Below, in pieces: positions 4,644-63,655 of a DNA stretch of 64,000 nt (its first letter is position 1; each line of letters begins with the position of its first letter). A program made the position numbers and the translations under genes. Below the pieces are notes generated by a model. It ran no database searches, was not told the origin of the DNA, and was given only the letters and a program-made list of their open reading frames with translations. This DNA comes from Parashewanella hymeniacidonis (GTDB taxonomy: Bacteria; Pseudomonadota; Gammaproteobacteria; Enterobacterales; Shewanellaceae), in assembly GCF_016900895.1 (NCBI RefSeq), contig NZ_JAFEUN010000006.1, positions 1 through 64,000 on the forward strand, in the 5' to 3' direction.

Positions 4644-6811
4644 TCCGTTTTAAAAAATTACTTCATCCCAGAATCAGTATCAGAACCAAGCTTTTTATCA
4701 TCGTTATCTTTTTTGCTGTGCTCCCTTGGTTTGGGTACCGATACCTTTGGGAAATTGATAATTATCTAAAACTCAGCCAACAACATTCGTTAACGTCAAC
4801 AAGTCAGGCCGTTGCAACCGCTTTACATCAACGCCCTACTCTATTTTCTCAACTGAACAGAAATTTAGTCCAACAAAGAGAAAAGGATTTCTATAATTAC
4901 TCATTAAAACAGGCCGTCTTTGAAGGTTCAATCGACAAGTTACTGCTGACGGGAAAAGACAAATTTAAATACTTTTCGTCCAGCTTCATTACTTACAAAA
5001 CCAAAACAGTAAAAAAAGAAGATTATGCAATTAACGCCATGATTGGAAACTTTGATACTGATTCATACCTAGTTTTATCCGTAAAAACACCGAGTATCTC
5101 AACACAAGCAAAAGGCAGTTTTCGTTTCGATGTTGGCGACCACTTGATCATTGCAACAACAGATAAGAATGAGAATCTTAAACGCTTTATCGTCTCAATA
5201 AATCAAAATAAATCACTTAATTTAGCATTACTTCCAACGAACCCAGCGATGATCGTTCCTCAAACATTGCAATCTGACTACCAAGGTTTTTGGCGTGAGA
5301 CGCCTATTGGCTTTGATTTAGTGTTGAGCATTCCCTCAAAAGAATTGGGCGATAAGTTTTCATTCTCGGCGTATTTTGCAAATAAAAACAACCCAACTGA
5401 AAGCAACGCTGTCTTGGCATCAAGTCCGATAAATTCAGTTCATAACTTAGGAAATTTAAACAAACCTTCAGAAACCATCGAGTCTGTTGTCAACGCTTTA
5501 AGCTACACAGAAGCCAGAATTTGGGTATTAAACAGTGTCGGTCAAGTGCTCGCTTCTGGAGGCAGTATTCATGATGCACAAAACAGCTGGAATACTGCAA
5601 CCAATATTAAAAAATCAGAAAATTATTTAAGTGCTATGCTTGCCCCACTCTTCCGATTATTCGAGCAAAATACTGACACCAATTTTGTGGACCCATTCAA
5701 CAACGCTACTCACATTGACTCACCAATCGTGAACCGTGCCATGAGTGGATTTACAATAAGTGAGAAGTATTATACTCCCGATAACAAAGCTGAAATTTTG
5801 GCATCAGCAACCCCGATTTGGCAACAGAATAATGTTGTCGGCGTTGTGATAGCAGAACAATCAACAATGGGAATTAGAGCATTACGTAACAATGCGATGC
5901 AATCTTTACTCAATACGGTATTTATCGTATTACTGCTCGCTAGCGCCGCCATTATACTTTTTGCTTCTAACATTTCAAACCGGATAACTCGGCTCAGAAA
6001 CGACGCTAAAGATGCCGTTGATCATAAAGGAAAGTTCAACGATTTCACCTACCAATCTCAGACTCAAGACGAAATTGGTGATTTAGGTCGCAGCTTCCAA
6101 GAGGTACTTCAACAACTTGGGCAATATAACCTTTATCTTGAAAAAATGAGCTCACGGCTCGGACATGAACTCAGAACACCAATTACAGTAGTTCGTTCAT
6201 CACTTGAGCACATTCAACTCACAGGCTCAAACCCACAAGCAGATAAATACATCGTTAGAGCACAAGAAGGTTTAAAAAGATTAAGTCTAATTCTCAACAG
6301 TATGACAGAAGCTTCCCGTATTGAATCCAGCCTACAAAACGAAAATAGAGAAGTGTTCAATTTAAGCGAGGTCGTAAACGGTTTAGTAGAAGGATATCAA
6401 TTGGGATTTCCTGACTCTCTCTTTACGCTAACCAATAATACAAAAGTTGTTTATGTAGATGGTGTTCCCGAATATTTCGCACAATTATTAGACAAGCTCA
6501 TATCCAATGCGATAGACTTCTCAACATCTAGACGTCCAATAGAGATTTCCGTAACTCAGGATTCTGATGCCGTTATTGTTTCAGTCACTAATGAAGGGCC
6601 AAAATTACCTCTTGGAATGGAAAACGAAATCTTTAGCTCACTCATTTCGATAAGAGAGAATAACTCAAATTCCCCCCCCCATTTAGGGTTCGGATTGTAT
6701 ATCGCTAAATTAATTGCCGAATTTCATAATGGCAGTATTTCAGCTAAAAATAGAACTGATGTTGACGGAGTTTTAGTTACCGTTTTGTTCCCAAAATATA
6801 GAGAATCATAA
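4640..6811 (+). CDS. pdsS: Sensor histidine kinase of the dedicated sortase system (PdsS-like)
   Basis: An inner-membrane sensor kinase of about 723 residues. It has a transmembrane helix near residues 15-33, a large periplasmic sensor region (35-420), a second transmembrane helix (about 425-445), a HAMP-type linker, a dimerisation domain with the phosphorylated His near 509 (RLGHELRTP), and a HATPase domain with an N box (KLISNAIDFS, about 620) and a glycine box (HLGFGLYIAK, about 681). The pairing with the adjacent regulator and the long extracytoplasmic region match the sortase-system kinase family. An ATG at 4640 overlaps the regulator stop as ATGA and is preferred over the in-frame ATG at 4625. 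A run of nine C lies inside the ATP-binding region. The stop codon overlaps metC. Confidence 0.82.
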   Translation: MIRFKKLLHPRISIRTKLFIIVIFFAVLPWFGYRYLWEIDNYLKLSQQHSLTSTSQAVATALHQRPTLFSQLNRNLVQQREKDFYNYSLKQAVFEGSIDKLLLTGKDKFKYFSSSFITYKTKTVKKEDYAINAMIGNFDTDSYLVLSVKTPSISTQAKGSFRFDVGDHLIIATTDKNENLKRFIVSINQNKSLNLALLPTNPAMIVPQTLQSDYQGFWRETPIGFDLVLSIPSKELGDKFSFSAYFANKNNPTESNAVLASSPINSVHNLGNLNKPSETIESVVNALSYTEARIWVLNSVGQVLASGGSIHDAQNSWNTATNIKKSENYLSAMLAPLFRLFEQNTDTNFVDPFNNATHIDSPIVNRAMSGFTISEKYYTPDNKAEILASATPIWQQNNVVGVVIAEQSTMGIRALRNNAMQSLLNTVFIVLLLASAAIILFASNISNRITRLRNDAKDAVDHKGKFNDFTYQSQTQDEIGDLGRSFQEVLQQLGQYNLYLEKMSSRLGHELRTPITVVRSSLEHIQLTGSNPQADKYIVRAQEGLKRLSLILNSMTEASRIESSLQNENREVFNLSEVVNGLVEGYQLGFPDSLFTLTNNTKVVYVDGVPEYFAQLLDKLISNAIDFSTSRRPIEISVTQDSDAVIVSVTNEGPKLPLGMENEIFSSLISIRENNSNSPPHLGFGLYIAKLIAEFHNGSISAKNRTDVDGVLVTVLFPKYRES
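6672..6680 (+). repeat. Poly-C tract of nine inside the kinase gene
   Basis: Nine consecutive C residues encode the end of Ser, two Pro and the start of His just before the kinase glycine box. In a 38% G+C genome such a run is uncommon. Slippage here would truncate or shift the last 45 codons of the kinase and disturb the overlap with metC. Confidence 0.8.
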
Positions 6812-7986
6812 TGACAAAAGAAAAGCACACTAAACAAACGAAAATTATCACTTCTGGTCGAAACAAAGACTGGAATAAAGGTGTGGTTAATACGCCTGTA
6901 TATCGTGCCTCGACTGTGCTTTTTGATACTCTAGACGAAATGTATAACGCCGTTAAAAATGGTTCTGAGAATAAACTCGCTTATGGGCGCCGAGGAACCC
7001 CAACTCAATTCGCTCTTCAAGAAGCGATTGCTGAATTAGAAGGCGGTCATGCCACTGCGTTGTACCCTTCTGGTGCAGCTGCTATTAGCTGTGCTTTATT
7101 ATCTTTTTTATCTGCGGGTGATCATCTACTAATGGTGGATAGTGTCTATGAACCAACAAGGCATTTCTGCGAAACAATTCTTAAAGATTTTGGTGTAGAA
7201 ACGACTTACTACGACCCTATGATTGGCTCCGCTATAGGTACATTAATTCAACCCAATACAAAAATTTTATTTTTAGAATCTCCCGGCTCTTTGACGATGG
7301 AAGTTCAAGATGTTCCAACGCTTTGTAAAATTGCTCACCAATATAACATCCTCACGTTTTTAGATAATACTTGGGCATCACCTATCAATTGTCGTCCCTT
7401 TGAACTTGGTATTGATGTTTCAATTCAAGCTGCGACTAAATACATTGTTGGTCACTCAGACGTGATGATGGGAACAGCAACAACAACTGAGACGTTATGG
7501 CCACAGCTAAAAGCTCGATCTTATGCGCTTGGTCAATGTGTATCGCCTGACGATGCTTATTTAGCTCACCGTGGTTTAAGAACTTTAGCCGTAAGAATGA
7601 ATCAACATGAACGCAGTGCGAGCGAAGTAGCTACTTGGCTACAAAAAAGGCCTGAAGTGGATCATATTCGCCACCCCGCTTTCGAATCTTGTCCAGGACA
7701 TGAGTTTTTTAAACGTGACTTTTCCGCTTCAAATGGATTGTTTTCTTTTGTATTAACAGGAGTGTCGAAAACTCAATTAAAGCACTTTGTTGAAGGTATG
7801 ACGCTATTCAAAATGGGCTTCTCTTGGGGCGGTTATGAAAGCCTAATCATCCCTGCTTTTAATTTATCGAAAATTCGCTCTGCAACACCATGGCCAAAAA
7901 ATAGCTTTGTTGTTCGATTACATATTGGTTTGGAAGACCCTAGAGACTTAATTGCCGACTTAGAAGCTGCTTTCAGTCGATTATAA
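6811..7986 (+). CDS. metC: Cystathionine beta-lyase
   Basis: A 391-residue PLP enzyme of the Cys/Met metabolism family that cleaves cystathionine to homocysteine, ammonia and pyruvate in methionine synthesis. Visible features are YGRRGTPTQ near residue 50, the phosphate-binding GHATALYPSGAAA segment near residue 90, the FLDNTWASP cofactor-binding motif, and the Schiff-base Lys in AATKYIVGHSD near residue 210, the same position as in E. coli MetC. FSWGGYESL near the C terminus is diagnostic of beta-lyases rather than gamma-synthases. Its ATG shares one base with the kinase stop (TAATG), implying translational coupling to a two-component operon, an odd setting for a housekeeping enzyme. Confidence 0.92.
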   Translation: MTKEKHTKQTKIITSGRNKDWNKGVVNTPVYRASTVLFDTLDEMYNAVKNGSENKLAYGRRGTPTQFALQEAIAELEGGHATALYPSGAAAISCALLSFLSAGDHLLMVDSVYEPTRHFCETILKDFGVETTYYDPMIGSAIGTLIQPNTKILFLESPGSLTMEVQDVPTLCKIAHQYNILTFLDNTWASPINCRPFELGIDVSIQAATKYIVGHSDVMMGTATTTETLWPQLKARSYALGQCVSPDDAYLAHRGLRTLAVRMNQHERSASEVATWLQKRPEVDHIRHPAFESCPGHEFFKRDFSASNGLFSFVLTGVSKTQLKHFVEGMTLFKMGFSWGGYESLIIPAFNLSKIRSATPWPKNSFVVRLHIGLEDPRDLIADLEAAFSRL

Positions 7987-59552: not shown

Positions 59553-59745
59553 GTTTCATCCTCTGGCGTTGCTCAAAGTCATCACGACAATCGGCATCAC
59601 AAAAGCGCTCACCTTCTTTCAAAGATTCCTCGCAGTTGTGGCAATACCCTGTGAATTTCAGTTTTGGTGAAGTGTCACGGCTCGATAAAGCCGCTTTAAT
59701 GTGCTGCTCTTGTAGATCAGCTGCTATATCTGCGTTGTCGCTCAT
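59533..59745 (-). CDS. Small zinc-ribbon phage protein
   Basis: A 70-residue protein with four metal-binding Cys in CHNCEESLKEGERFCDADC (residues about 35-53), the pattern of DUF2116-type and DksA/TraR-like zinc ribbons. It could bind DNA or RNA polymerase. It overlaps the upstream regulator by four bases and the downstream gene by 20. Confidence 0.68.
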   Translation of the reverse strand: MSDNADIAADLQEQHIKAALSSRDTSPKLKFTGYCHNCEESLKEGERFCDADCRDDFEQRQRMKHGTVKC

Positions 59746-59930
59746 GCAGCCTCCTTATCAAAAGCAGTTTTAATTTTTAAAATTGCTTCGTATGAAGGGC
59801 TTTTAATTTCGCCAACTGCGACACGGTGTATTTGCGAGTGACATAATTCATGTTTCTTCGCAAAAGCTCTCAGCTTGCGTTCACCAAGTAACGCTTGCAG
59901 CTTTCTTCTGATCACTTCTAGGTCGTTCAT
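59742..59930 (-). CDS. Small helix-turn-helix regulator, CII-position
   Basis: A 62-residue protein (MNDLEVIRRKLQAL) with a helix-turn-helix pattern (AFAKKHELCHSQIHRVAVGE, about residues 23-42). It follows the Cro-like gene with a TGATG overlap, the place of cII in lambdoid phages. The frame extends to 59951, but ATG at 59930 is coupled and preferred. Confidence 0.62.
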   Translation of the reverse strand: MNDLEVIRRKLQALLGERKLRAFAKKHELCHSQIHRVAVGEIKSPSYEAILKIKTAFDKEAA

Positions 59931-60139
59931 CACTTGCCACCTTGAACACAAAACACAGCAGGGTTTAACTTCTGCAAAGGAACACCAGTAAGTTTGTGAA
60001 CGATTTGCGCTCTATTGGCAGGAACAACATTAGATGTAAACCATTGAGAAACGGCTTGTTGACTGACATTGCAAGACTCAGCAATATCAACTTGCGTAAT
60101 GTGCGCAGGGATTAACTCCCGTAAATTGTTTATCTCCAT
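59930..60139 (-). CDS. Cro-like repressor
   Basis: A 69-residue HTH protein (ITQVDIAESCNVSQQAVSQW, about residues 14-33) of the Cro/YdaS type. It is the first gene of the leftward early operon and divergent from the CI-like gene. It should bind the ACAAG-N5-CTTGT operators in the 113-bp gap and turn off repressor synthesis. Confidence 0.78.
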   Translation of the reverse strand: MEINNLRELIPAHITQVDIAESCNVSQQAVSQWFTSNVVPANRAQIVHKLTGVPLQKLNPAVFCVQGGK

Positions 60140-60151
60140 GAATTACCTAAT

Positions 60152-60240
60152 GCAAGTTTTTCTTGTATTGCCACAAATACTTGCACATTAATTCAAGATT
60201 GACAAGTTTTTCTTGTGGTGCATAATAAAGTAATACTTGT
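60152..60240. promoter_or_regulatory. Operator cluster OR-like
   Basis: In the divergent gap lie GCAAG-TTTTT-CTTGT (60152-60166), ACAAG-TTTTT-CTTGT (60202-60216, perfect) and the weaker TAAAG-TAATA-CTTGT (60226-60240). Extra CTTG/CAAG half-sites lie between. The same palindrome recurs at 62872 and 62916. Confidence 0.78.
60199..60227 (+). promoter_or_regulatory. Promoter of the CI-like repressor gene
   Basis: TTGACA at 60199 and CATAAT at 60221 with a 16-base spacer. The perfect operator overlaps the -35 end, so binding by Cro (or CI itself) would block it. Confidence 0.65.
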
Positions 60241-60252
60241 ACCATTTAGAAT

Positions 60253-60708
60253 ATGGAAGATAAGATTTTGATAGGTCAGCGCATAAGAGCTGCAAGGGAG
60301 AAGTTAAACCTGAGCCAAGAGGAACTTGGTAGGTTAATGGAAATCTCTTTTCAGTCTGTTCAGCAGTGGGAATCAGGGAAAACGACCCCGAGGGCATCAC
60401 GCATGCGCAGATTGGCCTCTGTGTTAAAAACAACTCCAAACTGGTTACAGTTCGGCTTGGGGATCTCTAGTAATGAGAATATTGATAACTCGATAAAACT
60501 GATCACATCAGACGAGTTCAAAACTCAAATTGCTAGCGCTCATTCCCGTATGCTGCAAACTGCAATAAGTATGGGGTGGATTTCTTTTGGCAGAAGCGAG
60601 ATAACAATGAGTATCTTAAACGACTTGTTTTTATCTAAGCTATATGAAGAATACGGCCTTAATCCAAATGAAGATGAAAATGAGTCTACCGACTCAGCCA
60701 CAGGATAA
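60253..60708 (+). CDS. CI-like prophage repressor (no peptidase domain)
   Basis: A 151-residue protein with an N-terminal XRE helix-turn-helix domain (about 8-65, LNLSQEELGRLMEISFQSVQQW). The C terminus is short and helical and lacks the S24 peptidase domain, so it is probably not cleaved in the RecA/SOS response. Induction may therefore depend on an antirepressor. It is divergent from the Cro-like gene, has its own promoter at 60199 and ends in a strong terminator. Confidence 0.82.
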   Translation: MEDKILIGQRIRAAREKLNLSQEELGRLMEISFQSVQQWESGKTTPRASRMRRLASVLKTTPNWLQFGLGISSNENIDNSIKLITSDEFKTQIASAHSRMLQTAISMGWISFGRSEITMSILNDLFLSKLYEEYGLNPNEDENESTDSATG

Positions 60709-60726
60709 GGCAAACAAATACCAATC

Positions 60727-60752
60727 GCCCACTTTAATGTGGGCTTTTTTTT
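60727..60752 (+). terminator. Terminator of the repressor gene
   Basis: GCCCAC / GTGGGC stem with a six-base loop and eight T, 18 bp after the repressor stop. The next gene begins 11 bp later. Confidence 0.88.
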
Positions 60753-60763
60753 AAGGAATGAAA

Positions 60764-61678
60764 ATGAAAAGATTATGGATAACACTTCCAATTATTTTTT
60801 TATCTGCATGTAACTCCACACCTGAGCCAACAGGTAAATGGCTATGGGAAAAGCCAAGCCTATATAATCAGCTAGATAAGGGTGAAGTATCTCCTGGGCA
60901 GGTCAATCAAACTTTTCAAATCATTAAAGCTAAATGCCAGAACGAAGCTTTAAAAATCCCACTACCACCACCTTCATGCGTCCAGCAAAGCGCACCAACC
61001 ACTTGTAATAATGCTGGTCCATTAATGAGTGGCTTTTGTCAGGGATATTATTCTCAGCCTCATTGCGACTACACAGCTTACAATGAAGCTAAAAGCGCAC
61101 AAAATCAGGTGTTCGAAAACTGTCTACACGTTCAAGGCTGGGTAAAAAAATGGCACTCCTTTGACGAAAAAGAAAGTAAACGCCCAGCCACTTCTACTAA
61201 AGTCAATGAAGAATCAAGTGTTAAGGATATCGTTAAGTCTATACCAGAGCTTTACCAATGGTATCAAGAGGACGGTAAGCTCTGGGAAAGAGCAATGGAA
61301 ATTGATAACAAGTTAGCCAACGATCCTAAATATGGCAATTTACCTACCAGAGAGAGATTCTTAGCCGTTGTCGAGAAAGTAAGAAAAGAGAGTCAGACTA
61401 CAGCAAAAACTACACACGTAACTAAACCCATTAGTTATTCATATAAAGATATGTACACAGGCGTGGGGATTGAGCATTGGATTAAAGAAAACAATTCTCA
61501 AGGTAAAGTAATCATTCTTGAGGACGGTTCTATCTGGAAAATTGAAGATAATATTGAAAGTATGCTTTGGCTACCAATAGACAGAATTTCCGTTGTTGAA
61601 TTGCCAGCTCAAGGGTTTTACCGTTTGATCAACAAAGAAAATGGAAACGTAGCGATAGGGAAGTATTTAGGTAAGTAA
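60764..61678 (+). CDS. Prophage lipoprotein, lysogenic conversion candidate
   Basis: A 304-residue protein with a lipoprotein signal (LPIIFLSAC, Cys near residue 16). Six or more further Cys lie in the next 100 residues (for example CVQQ, TTCNN and GFCQG), suggesting disulfides. A charged linker and a C-terminal beta-rich domain (VIILEDGSIWKIEDNI) follow. It is read in the repressor direction, where lambda carries rex and other morons, so expression from the lysogen and a role in superinfection exclusion or surface change are inferred. ATG at 60764 is preferred to 60758 because AAGG is seven bases before it. No family recognised. Confidence 0.72.
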   Translation: MKRLWITLPIIFLSACNSTPEPTGKWLWEKPSLYNQLDKGEVSPGQVNQTFQIIKAKCQNEALKIPLPPPSCVQQSAPTTCNNAGPLMSGFCQGYYSQPHCDYTAYNEAKSAQNQVFENCLHVQGWVKKWHSFDEKESKRPATSTKVNEESSVKDIVKSIPELYQWYQEDGKLWERAMEIDNKLANDPKYGNLPTRERFLAVVEKVRKESQTTAKTTHVTKPISYSYKDMYTGVGIEHWIKENNSQGKVIILEDGSIWKIEDNIESMLWLPIDRISVVELPAQGFYRLINKENGNVAIGKYLGK

Positions 61679-61684
61679 CACATC

Positions 61685-61713
61685 AAAAAGCTAGAGCCGC
61701 TTCGCTCTAGCTT
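61685..61713. terminator. Bidirectional terminator between convergent genes
   Basis: A perfect 10-bp stem (AAGCTAGAGC / GCTCTAGCTT) with a six-base loop. It serves the lipoprotein gene from the left and, with a TTTTT run on the minus strand, the membrane gene from the right. Confidence 0.75.
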
Positions 61714-61732
61714 GGTTCTAGCTTGGTTCAAA

Positions 61733-62047
61733 TCAACCGTTAATAAACTTCGCAAATGAAAGCACGTTCTTAGTCCCTTGTTCATCTTCAACGGTATCAA
61801 CCATTCCAAGATAATCCTCAACCAATACATCACGCTCATCATTCAGTTTATCGAACGCAGCAGGATCAAAGTCGTCAGGGTGAAGTTGTTTCATTCTGTA
61901 TTGCTTCACAGCATTTGCTGCAATCTTAGTTTCTAATGCGCAATCTGTATCTCCAGCGCATTTACTCGATACGTTAACTTTTCTATTTACGAAAACAAAG
62001 AAATAAAGCCAGACCAAAACAATAGCGATTAAAAATAAATAGTACAC
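61733..62047 (-). CDS. Membrane-anchored 104-residue protein
   Basis: One N-terminal transmembrane helix (about 2-20, FLIAIVLVWLYFFVFV), then a cytoplasmic or periplasmic acidic helical domain with two Cys (CAGDTDC). It is the last gene of the minus-strand cassette between the two operators. No family recognised. An exclusion or toxin-antitoxin-like role is possible but not shown. Confidence 0.6.
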   Translation of the reverse strand: MYYLFLIAIVLVWLYFFVFVNRKVNVSSKCAGDTDCALETKIAANAVKQYRMKQLHPDDFDPAAFDKLNDERDVLVEDYLGMVDTVEDEQGTKNVLSFAKFING

Positions 62048-62074
62048 ACAAACTCCCTTTCATACTTACAGCCG

Positions 62075-62557
62075 TTATTTCACAGCTTTACTTCTTAGAG
62101 TGTAAAAAGAACACACCATTATGATTGCTATGTTAACGCTCGGAATACCATAGCTATAAAAATCACCCAAATAATCAACACCCATCTGGCGATCAACCAA
62201 CCGAATAACTTGCGTCAAGGCCATCGCTTGCAAAGCTCTTGTTACAAATACAGAGCAAGCCCCTTTGATTACACCCAGTAGATCGTGAAGTTCGGTTAAA
62301 ATAAACACCGCAACCAAATTGATAAAAGCAAACCCCATGTAATATGAGAGCCTACCGATATCTTTATCAATTGGTGAAATCACATCAATGATGAACGGTC
62401 TAATTGCTAAATTTAAAGATTGAACAATCAAAAAGCACAAGACTGCTAGAAATTCAGAGCTGACCCCTTTCCACTTCACCAGGTGAACCAACAACAAGCT
62501 CACTACTGATATTTCAACAGCTAGACCAACATATTTAAGTAACTCAATTGTCAACAT
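62075..62557 (-). CDS. Multi-pass membrane protein of the immunity cassette
   Basis: A 160-residue protein with about four membrane helices (roughly 12-28, 38-58, 72-90 and 135-152) and short charged loops. No known transporter or holin motif. Its location in the immunity region and strand opposite to the repressor suggest lysogenic expression, and membrane exclusion of other phages is a reasonable hypothesis. It shares its strand with two small genes. Confidence 0.65.
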   Translation of the reverse strand: MLTIELLKYVGLAVEISVVSLLLVHLVKWKGVSSEFLAVLCFLIVQSLNLAIRPFIIDVISPIDKDIGRLSYYMGFAFINLVAVFILTELHDLLGVIKGACSVFVTRALQAMALTQVIRLVDRQMGVDYLGDFYSYGIPSVNIAIIMVCSFYTLRSKAVK

Positions 62558-62569
62558 AATCTACCTAAA

Positions 62570-62597
62570 GAAAAACCGCCCTCAAAAAGAAGGCGGT
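62570..62597 (-). terminator. Terminator after the 54-residue gene
   Basis: ACCGCC / GGCGGT stem with an 11-base loop, followed on the minus strand by TTTTT, 17 bp past the stop. Confidence 0.7.
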
Positions 62598-62613
62598 ATA
62601 AATAACGTAACTA

Positions 62614-62778
62614 TTAGCGCTCTGACTTTGGCGGCTCGATACCATCACCATTATCAGCCTGAACTGAAGGTGGCTCAATGCCGTCGCCATTGTCCAGATT
62701 TTGGCTCAAATTACCAGCATCTTGATCAAGTTGCTCTAGATCTTCATTGGTTTTGCAGCTTTCACTTGTTTTATTCAT
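62614..62778 (-). CDS. 54-residue acidic protein with duplicated DNGDGIEPP motif
   Basis: A small ORF from ATG at 62778 to TAA at 62614. It is strongly acidic, with two copies of DNGDGIEPP (residues about 29-37 and 42-50) in its C-terminal half and a Cys at residue 8. No signal or membrane segment. A purine-rich site (GGGAAAAGAAG) precedes the ATG, and a terminator follows. It is a separate small transcription unit between the membrane gene and the second operator cluster. Confidence 0.5.
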   Translation of the reverse strand: MNKTSESCKTNEDLEQLDQDAGNLSQNLDNGDGIEPPSVQADNGDGIEPPKSER

Positions 62779-62871
62779 AAACTTCTTTTCCCTAAAAGGC
62801 TATTAAACGAATAAAAGAGGTCACATCGACCTCAGATTTCCAATCAATAATAAAATTACTAAAAAAAATAT

Positions 62872-62930
62872 ACAAGTTTTACTTGCTTTTTTCTGTTTTA
62901 CTTGTATCTTGTATTACAAGAATTACTTGT
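62872..62930. promoter_or_regulatory. Operator cluster OL-like
   Basis: ACAAG-TTTTA-CTTGC (62872-62886), a half-site CTTGT (62901-62905) and ACAAG-AATTA-CTTGT (62916-62930, perfect) match the palindrome of the repressor region. They precede the rightward early operon starting at 62995. Confidence 0.78.
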
Positions 62931-62994
62931 ATTTGTGTTTCCCATTGTTTCGGAACGTTTCAATTTTAGCGTTAGACATACGGAGTAAAACAGA

Positions 62995-63339
62995 ATGTTA
63001 AAACTTAAAGCAGAAACCAACAAAGAGAAGGAAGAGGCGATATTACTTCTTAATCTTAGATTTGCTTGCCTTATATCTAAAAGTGCGAACCTAATGCACT
63101 GTATAAATGTACAGGCAAAAATAACAGAACTCGACAAATATTTAAAGGGTGTTCCTGCCCCATCTAAACATTTTGACACCTATTTTTGTCAATTCACTGG
63201 CGATCTGTGCAAACAATTCTCGTTACGTGTAAATGCACAAGGTGAAATCAAAGTTGCACGTAAGACACACCAGAAACATTTGGCCAATGTAGTAGCGCTA
63301 GAAGTTACCCCAAAGCAAAAGGAGTTAGCTCATGTTTAA
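62995..63339 (+). CDS. Hypothetical early phage protein
   Basis: A 114-residue basic protein with a helical N terminus (LKAETNKEKEEAILLLNL) and several Cys (CLIS, CINV, CQFTGDLC). First gene of the rightward operon, with a CGGAG ribosome-binding site. It overlaps the next gene by eight bases. No family recognised. Confidence 0.65.
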   Translation: MLKLKAETNKEKEEAILLLNLRFACLISKSANLMHCINVQAKITELDKYLKGVPAPSKHFDTYFCQFTGDLCKQFSLRVNAQGEIKVARKTHQKHLANVVALEVTPKQKELAHV

Positions 63340-63655
63340 CAGCCCTGAGCAAGTTGCCAACATGCTAGCCAGCAAAGTTGTCGTAGGAATGACGCAAAAG
63401 CCGTCAGAGGATTACATCGAGGCGAAAGCCGACTGGATTGTAAGCGAGCTAGAAGAAGGTCGTGAAGTAGAAGGACACAGCCTAGATAGCATTATCGAAG
63501 AAATCCTAGTCGATGCTCACTTAGTTGTGAAATACGCCTACATCGATGGCTCAAAGCTCAACCCAATGACGGTATTGATTGATAAAGCAATCATACGCAT
63601 TGCAGACAAGCTAGCCCCAAAGCTAGCACAACAAGATATGGAGAACGCAGCATGA
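63332..63655 (+). CDS. Hypothetical early phage protein
   Basis: A 107-residue acidic helical protein (MLASKVVVGMTQKP, then DWIVSELEEGREVEGH). It is translationally coupled to its neighbours on both sides (8-bp overlap upstream, ATGA downstream). No family recognised. Confidence 0.62.
   Translation: MFNSPEQVANMLASKVVVGMTQKPSEDYIEAKADWIVSELEEGREVEGHSLDSIIEEILVDAHLVVKYAYIDGSKLNPMTVLIDKAIIRIADKLAPKLAQQDMENAA

What the first reader, a model, noticed from the sequence alone, without database searches (positions are those of the whole stretch)
60152..62930. Two lambda-like operator clusters (OR/OL) with a shared palindrome 2.7 kb apart
ACAAG-N5-CTTGT occurs as two good copies plus a weaker one or half-site in the repressor/Cro gap and again before the rightward operon. 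The spacing between clusters and the repressor gene lying between them parallel OR and OL in lambda, suggesting a looped repression complex.
Basis: partly seen in the sequence, partly recalled or inferred. Interest (0 to 1): 0.72.

Follow-up and report, generated by a model that had tools for sequence, protein, structure and literature searches.

The report
Lambda-type paired operator clusters in prophage
A Shewanella-family prophage carries the same short palindrome in two switch regions on either side of its repressor gene, much as phage lambda does, and relatives show the palindrome changing together with the repressor.

Summary
Confirmed as sequence. ACAAG-N5-CTTGT is exact at 60202 and 62916 and has one mismatch at 60152 and 62872, with half-sites beside each pair. 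With up to one mismatch these are the only close pairs in the window; single copies elsewhere in the genome are at control level. A Shewanella prophage with a 58% repressor keeps the spacings with other core letters; a Parashewanella curva prophage with a 46% repressor keeps the 44-bp OL spacing with altered half-sites. Over 34 family loci (33 distinct, 15 repressor HTH groups) the repressor/Cro gap and the gap before the other operon share words according to repressor type (0 of 100,000 permutations). Gene order is lambda's in mirror image. So these are OR and OL. Looping is untested and weakened: the 151-aa repressor has no S24 domain, and the repressor-to-PL-gene distance varies from 1.0 to 4.9 kb. 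The repressor's own promoter is near-consensus and covered by an operator; this goes with short repressors in the family (6 of 8 against 2 of 26). New member of a known kind.

The parts
60152..60166 (.). OR site a, GCAAG-N5-CTTGT (1 mismatch), before the cro-like gene
   Evidence: L030 has a site at the same distance from the repressor start
60170..60184 (.). OR half-site (CTTGC at 60180-60184), overlaps the putative -10 of the leftward promoter
   Evidence: conserved in L030
60202..60216 (.). OR central site, exact ACAAG-N5-CTTGT, overlaps the -35 hexamers of both putative divergent promoters
60226..60240 (.). OR weak site (2 mismatches, one good half CTTGT) at the end of the -10 of the repressor promoter
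   Evidence: same 24-bp offset in L030
60199..60226 (+). repressor promoter TTGACA-16-CATAAT (11 of 12 consensus letters)
60177..60205 (-). putative leftward (PR-like) promoter TTGTCA-17-AAGTAT with TG before the -10; two other candidates at 60250/60251 score the same (8 of 12)
   Evidence: in L030 and L031 TTGTCA at the same place is the best leftward candidate
60253..60708 (+). 151-aa repressor: P22 c2/434-type HTH, helical C-terminus, no S24 domain found
60727..60744 (+). terminator-like hairpin with T run after the repressor gene
59930..60139 (-). Cro-like protein, 69 aa: P22_Cro and YdaS_toxin matches below their Pfam cut-offs, HTH_3 above it
62872..62886 (.). OL site a, ACAAG-N5-CTTGC (1 mismatch)
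   Evidence: orthologous position in L030 and L031
62891..62905 (.). OL half-site (CTTGT at 62901-62905)
   Evidence: conserved in L030
62916..62930 (.). OL site b, exact ACAAG-N5-CTTGT, 44 bp from site a (44 bp in L030 and L031 too)
62883..62910 (+). possible weak PL promoter TTGCTT-16-TATCTT (7 of 12 letters only)
   Evidence: below the mean of shuffled sequence
62995..63339 (+). first gene of the PL-like operon (114 aa, unknown function), marker gene of the family
61733..62778 (-). three-gene cassette in the slot where lambda has rex: NGxGxEPP-repeat peptide, five-helix (by its sequence, membrane) protein, about 100-aa protein with one hydrophobic segment (by eye)

Best explanation
These are the OR and OL operator clusters of a lambda-type immunity region, in mirror image. 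Inferred mechanism: dimers of the 151-aa repressor bind ACAAG-N5-CTTGT with a P22 c2/434-like helix. At OR, the central site covers the overlapping -35 regions of two back-to-back promoters, so one bound dimer can shut off the leftward cro-O-P operon and also limit the repressor's own near-consensus promoter. At OL, the pair 44 bp apart blocks the rightward recombination operon. Cro probably competes for the same sites. Shown: sites, spacing, gene order, covariation with repressor type. Inferred: binding, repression, autoregulation, Cro competition. A loop joining OR and OL is possible (I give it about 0.3) but nothing here shows it.
For: Clustering far beyond shuffles. Same site offsets with different core letters in a Shewanella prophage with a 58% repressor. 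In P. curva the repressor differs in the recognition helix, none of 14 genome-wide ACAAG-type matches lies on its prophage contig, and altered CAA-N7-TTG sites sit at orthologous positions, one in OR and two in OL with the same 44-bp spacing. Family test on 34 loci: OR shares on average 17.7 7-mers with its own OL, 18.1 with OLs of other loci of the same HTH group (114 ordered pairs) and 7.0 with OLs of other groups (1,008 ordered pairs); 0 of 100,000 permutations over 15 groups. O-like replication protein, NinB, DnaC-like loader, exonuclease VIII and RecT place the operons. HTH matches P22 c2 at Z 13.3, rmsd 1.4, 66 aligned.
Against: No binding data. In the family test only 16 of 34 loci (7-mers), 18 (8-mers) or 14 (best ungapped segment) had an own OL beating every different-group OL. 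L082, L147 and L151 failed on all three measures, and L063/L125 (one locus, counted twice) failed on the word counts. The PL promoter of this window is weak by consensus (7 of 12). In P. curva's OR only one CAA-N7-TTG site is found (179 of 2,000 shuffles reach that). A first version of the family test with a dyad filter (9 loci) was significant with 16-bp windows (1 of 20,000 permutations), weaker with 15 (201) and not with 14 (2,460).
Confidence: 0.87

Rival explanations
1. The sites are OR and OL, and repressor dimers at the two clusters also join into a DNA loop.
For: Two multi-site clusters flank the repressor gene 2.7 kb apart in the window; the two-cluster arrangement is kept in relatives. 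Lambda's 2.3-kb OR-OL loop is established (passages of PMC3708714).
Against: Lambda loops through CI octamers (PMC3708714); that this needs the CI C-terminal domain is recalled. The window repressor has no S24 domain. Distance from repressor to PL gene ranges from 1,037 to 4,887 bp. Two operators of one regulon need no loop.
Confidence: 0.3
2. The palindromes are mainly the sites of the Cro-like protein, or of a second phage regulator, not of the 60253 product.
For: Cro proteins of lambdoid phages bind the same operators as the repressor (established knowledge, recalled); the Cro-like protein is also conserved in L030 and L031.
Against: The repressors of window and L030 have the same recognition-helix stretch (FQSVQQWESGKTTPR) and the same half-site, while P. 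curva differs in both. The Cro-like proteins differ as well, so this does not exclude Cro as a co-binder.
Confidence: 0.1
3. The matches are chance products of A/T-rich promoter DNA.
For: Over the whole window, matches with up to 2 mismatches are not in excess, nor are genome-wide A/T-core matches.
Against: Shuffles of the two gaps themselves, which keep composition, reach the counts in 0 and 1 of 5,000; spacing is kept in relatives while core letters differ.
Confidence: 0.02

Closest known systems
Phage lambda immunity region (OR, OL, cI, cro, rexAB)
   Same: Repressor gene between two operator clusters; divergent promoters in the repressor/Cro gap; replication genes on one side, recombination genes and integrase on the other; extra genes between repressor and OL.
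   Different: Mirror image; repressor 151 aa without S24 domain; repressor promoter near-consensus and overlapped by the central operator (lambda PRM is weak and activated, recalled); integrase gene points against the PL-like operon (in lambda it points the same way, recalled); cargo genes differ; looping not shown.
P22 c2 and phage 434 repressors
   Same: HTH domain: P22 c2 E 2.5e-9, 434 E 2.9e-5; P22 c2 is the best solved fold match. The half-site ACAA resembles the 434 operator half-site and AAG the P22 one (both operators recalled, no call).
   Different: Half-sites one base pair further apart than in 434 (15-bp site; 434 spacing recalled); C-terminal part helical in the model.
Phages with repressors lacking the peptidase domain
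   Same: Such repressors are known; [quoted passage not shown]
   Different: No antirepressor was identified here.

Membership tests
Lambda-type OR/OL immunity region | Repressor and Cro-like genes divergent, with several copies of one operator between them | tested here: met
Lambda-type OR/OL immunity region | Second cluster of the same operator before the other early operon, on the far side of the repressor | tested here: met
Lambda-type OR/OL immunity region | Operator sequence specific to the repressor and changing with it in both clusters | tested here: met
   (OR of P. curva weak on its own)
Lambda-type OR/OL immunity region | Replication genes in the PR operon, recombination genes in the PL operon | tested here: met
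Lambda-type OR/OL immunity region | Three full operators in each cluster | tested here: inconclusive
   two good copies plus half-sites or a weak copy at each cluster
Lambda-type OR/OL immunity region | Repressor and Cro bind the operators; OR-OL loop by repressor oligomers | not testable with these tools
   needs binding and looping assays
LexA/CI-type self-cleaving repressors (S24 C-terminal domain) | S24 peptidase domain after the HTH | tested here: not met
   Pfam finds no Peptidase_S24 in the window repressor nor in 5 of 5 short relatives, but does in 4 of 5 long ones; model shows helices only (4-sequence alignment)
P22 c2/434-type HTH domain | HTH fold and sequence similarity | tested here: met

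The most novel reading that the evidence does not exclude
The slot between repressor and OL is a cargo bay. In 6 distinct loci with identified repressors, plus one more beside the PL gene, it holds an undescribed three-gene module (NGxGxEPP-repeat peptide, five-helix membrane protein, small protein with one hydrophobic segment) that works like lambda rex as a phage-exclusion system. In P. curva the same bay holds a second repressor with this window's recognition helix although none of that genome's ACAAG-type matches lies on the prophage contig, which would make it a weapon against phages of this immunity type.
Probability: 0.18. Interest if true: 0.6.

Novelty: new member of a known kind. Interest (0 to 1): 0.37.

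Why it matters
It gives a set of 33 distinct related immunity regions with 15 repressor HTH types in which repressor specificity, operator sequence and repressor-to-OL distance vary. That is a natural test of how operator specificity evolves and of whether OR-OL distance is constrained. In the subgroup with short repressors the repressor promoter tends to be near-consensus (6 of 8 loci against 2 of 26 with long ones), which suggests a switch that needs no activation of the repressor promoter, unlike lambda's.

Tried and rejected
Close relatives in phage records: tblastn of the repressor in 'phages' found 116 records, all under 60% identity and none covering 80% of the query. An exact OL-like composite pattern in viral contigs gave 0 matches. 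The membrane protein gave no match in 'phages', no Pfam, NCBIfam or PADLOC family but one weak PHROG of unknown function (phrog_31674), no significant PDB fold match (best E 0.53), and only the window itself among 369 genomes drawn from the class at E 1e-6. Rejected: special 2.7-kb spacing; a host-wide regulon of the palindrome. S24 proteins are not listed among the VIA-align rows, which alone would not exclude them.

Loci used and dropped: one search lists 45 places with the PL gene in 36 of 152 family genomes. I examined 39 of 45 plus L063, which duplicates L125 (identical OR and OL). Not fetched: G505:C24, G457:C20, G428:C11, one G420 place, G458, G423. Dropped for lack of an identified or whole repressor: L137, L138, L139, L141 (short contig), L144, L152; 34 loci were counted (33 distinct). 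Some start codons were set by alignment and are off by a few codons (L127, L147) or uncertain. L143 and L149 were called repressors by similarity to the L063 repressor (30% and 43%); Pfam finds no domain in them. Of the 13 places of the membrane protein in 11 of 152 genomes I looked at 7. The association of short repressors with near-consensus promoters was looked for after seeing the data, and its loci are not independent: by HTH group (first member) it is 3 of 5 short against 0 of 10 long.

Papers: PMC3708714, PMC3317979, PMC6550527 and PMC10432266 were seen as passages; others only as search listings. A search for Parashewanella plus prophage found 0 papers. Notebook entry 3 speaks of 5 unrelated repressors for the cassette; the count that holds is 4 HTH groups plus one locus without an identified repressor.

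Full report
Observation. The palindrome ACAAG-N5-CTTGT occurs exactly at 60202 and 62916, with one mismatch at 60152 and 62872, and with two at 60226; extra half-sites are at 60180, 62901 and 62908. In dinucleotide shuffles of the two gaps, 0 and 1 of 5,000 reach two copies with up to one mismatch. The whole window has no excess of looser matches (35 against 40.4 expected), so what is special is the clustering. In the whole genome (4,808,805 bases, 307 contigs) there are 13 exact copies against 9 of the reversed control pattern. With an A/T core and up to one mismatch there are 20 against 33, with 4 of 20 here and no other two near each other. The other two exact A/T-core copies lie inside open frames, one of them efflux-pump-like by my reading.

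Where it lies. Left of the gap at 60140-60252, leftward genes encode a Cro-like protein, an O-like replication protein, a DnaC-like loader, NinB, endolysin, terminase and portal. Right of the gap at 62779-62994, rightward genes lead to exonuclease VIII (starts at 63652), then RecT beyond the window, and further on an integrase gene that points the other way. This is lambda's order in mirror image, so 60152-60240 is the OR-like and 62872-62930 the OL-like cluster.

Relatives. A Shewanella prophage (L030, sp. MBTL60-007; repressor 58% identical) has sites at 5900, 5950 and 5974, offsets of 50 and 24 bp as in the window, and at 7730 and 7774, 44 bp as in the window; all five core sequences differ. 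Of its 12 genome-wide A/T-core matches (control 12), 3 are at this locus. In a P. curva prophage (L031, same locus as L001; repressor 46%) 0 of 14 genome matches (control 21) fall on its contig C6. It carries CAA-N7-TTG sites at orthologous positions: one in OR (weak alone, 179 of 2,000 shuffles) and two in OL with the same 44-bp spacing (10 of 2,000). Its repressor differs from the other two within the recognition helix.

Family test. The first gene of the PL-like operon is found in 36 of 152 Shewanellaceae genomes. For 34 loci with an identified repressor (33 distinct; drops under Tried and rejected) I compared 150 bp before the repressor with 150 bp before the PL gene. The own pair shares 17.7 7-mers on average. 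Pairs from different loci of the same HTH group share 18.1 (114 ordered pairs) and pairs from different groups 7.0 (1,008 ordered pairs). With one locus per group (15), 0 of 100,000 permutations reach the observed sum, for 7-mers, 8-mers and best ungapped segment alike. Individually, 16, 18 and 14 of 34 loci had an own OL better than all different-group OLs; L082, L147 and L151 failed on all three measures, L063/L125 on the word counts. A first version on 12 loci gave the same direction, and one with a dyad filter was sensitive to window length. The distance from repressor start to PL gene start runs from 1,037 to 4,887 bp, 2,742 in the window.

Mechanism. The repressor model (mean pLDDT 82.4, alignment of 4) has a P22 c2-like HTH (Z 13.3, rmsd 1.4 over 66 residues) and three further helices without strands. 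Pfam finds HTH families and, below cut-off, a MqsA antitoxin match over the same stretch. As a control, Peptidase_S24 is found in 4 of 5 long repressors from relatives (not in L082) and in 0 of 5 short ones. The repressor promoter TTGACA-16-CATAAT matches 11 of 12 consensus letters. It shares its -35 region with a putative leftward promoter TTGTCA-17-AAGTAT (two other leftward candidates score the same), and the exact operator 60202 overlaps both. TTGTCA at the same place is the best leftward candidate in L030 and L031. One dimer at 60202 could therefore close both promoters; that is inference. A repressor promoter at 10 of 12 or better occurs in 6 of 8 loci with short repressors (149-166 aa) and 2 of 26 with long ones (228-242 aa), Fisher p 0.0005, a post hoc test on non-independent loci; by group 3 of 5 against 0 of 10. 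The PL promoter here is poor by consensus (7 of 12), while 13 of 34 loci have one at 10 or better.

Looping. Nothing tested here shows or excludes a loop. Lambda's 2.3-kb loop uses CI octamers (passages of PMC3708714). The absence of the S24 domain and the variable distance weaken the analogy for this phage.

Comparison. Lambda-type immunity region: the tested defining features are met except that three full operators per cluster remain inconclusive; binding and looping are not testable here. It is filed as a new member of a known kind, with a repressor lacking the peptidase domain. Such repressors are known (passage of PMC10432266).

Side finding. Between repressor and OL lies a leftward three-gene set. 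Relatives of it sit before the PL gene in 7 distinct loci (window, L030, L031, L125 = L063, L135, L149, L152), 6 of them with an identified repressor on the far side, in 4 HTH groups. Its function is unknown.

Noticed in passing
window 61733-62778 (-): Three-gene cassette (peptide with NGxGxEPP repeats, five-helix membrane protein, about 100-aa protein with one hydrophobic segment by eye) before the PL gene in 7 distinct prophage loci with differing repressors; no Pfam, NCBIfam or PADLOC family, no significant fold match for the five-helix protein.
   Followed up: partly
L001 5454-5852 (-) (P. curva, also L031): Second repressor paralogue, convergent with the first, with the same recognition-helix stretch (FQSVQQWESGKTTPR) as the window repressor, in a prophage on whose contig no ACAAG-type A/T-core match was found; an inverted repeat lies upstream of it (seen by eye).
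   Followed up: partly
window 62995-63339 (+): Short protein at the position of lambda N, with relatives in 36 of 152 Shewanellaceae genomes; no Pfam, PHROG or NCBIfam match.
   Followed up: partly
window 60758-61678 (+): 306-aa lipoprotein-like gene downstream of the repressor terminator, with partial matches to phrog_479 and phrog_10114; no blastp match in the 11 other loci.
   Followed up: no
window 59742-59951 (-): Small protein after the Cro-like gene that looks like an HTH by eye, but with no Pfam, PHROG or NCBIfam match.
   Followed up: no
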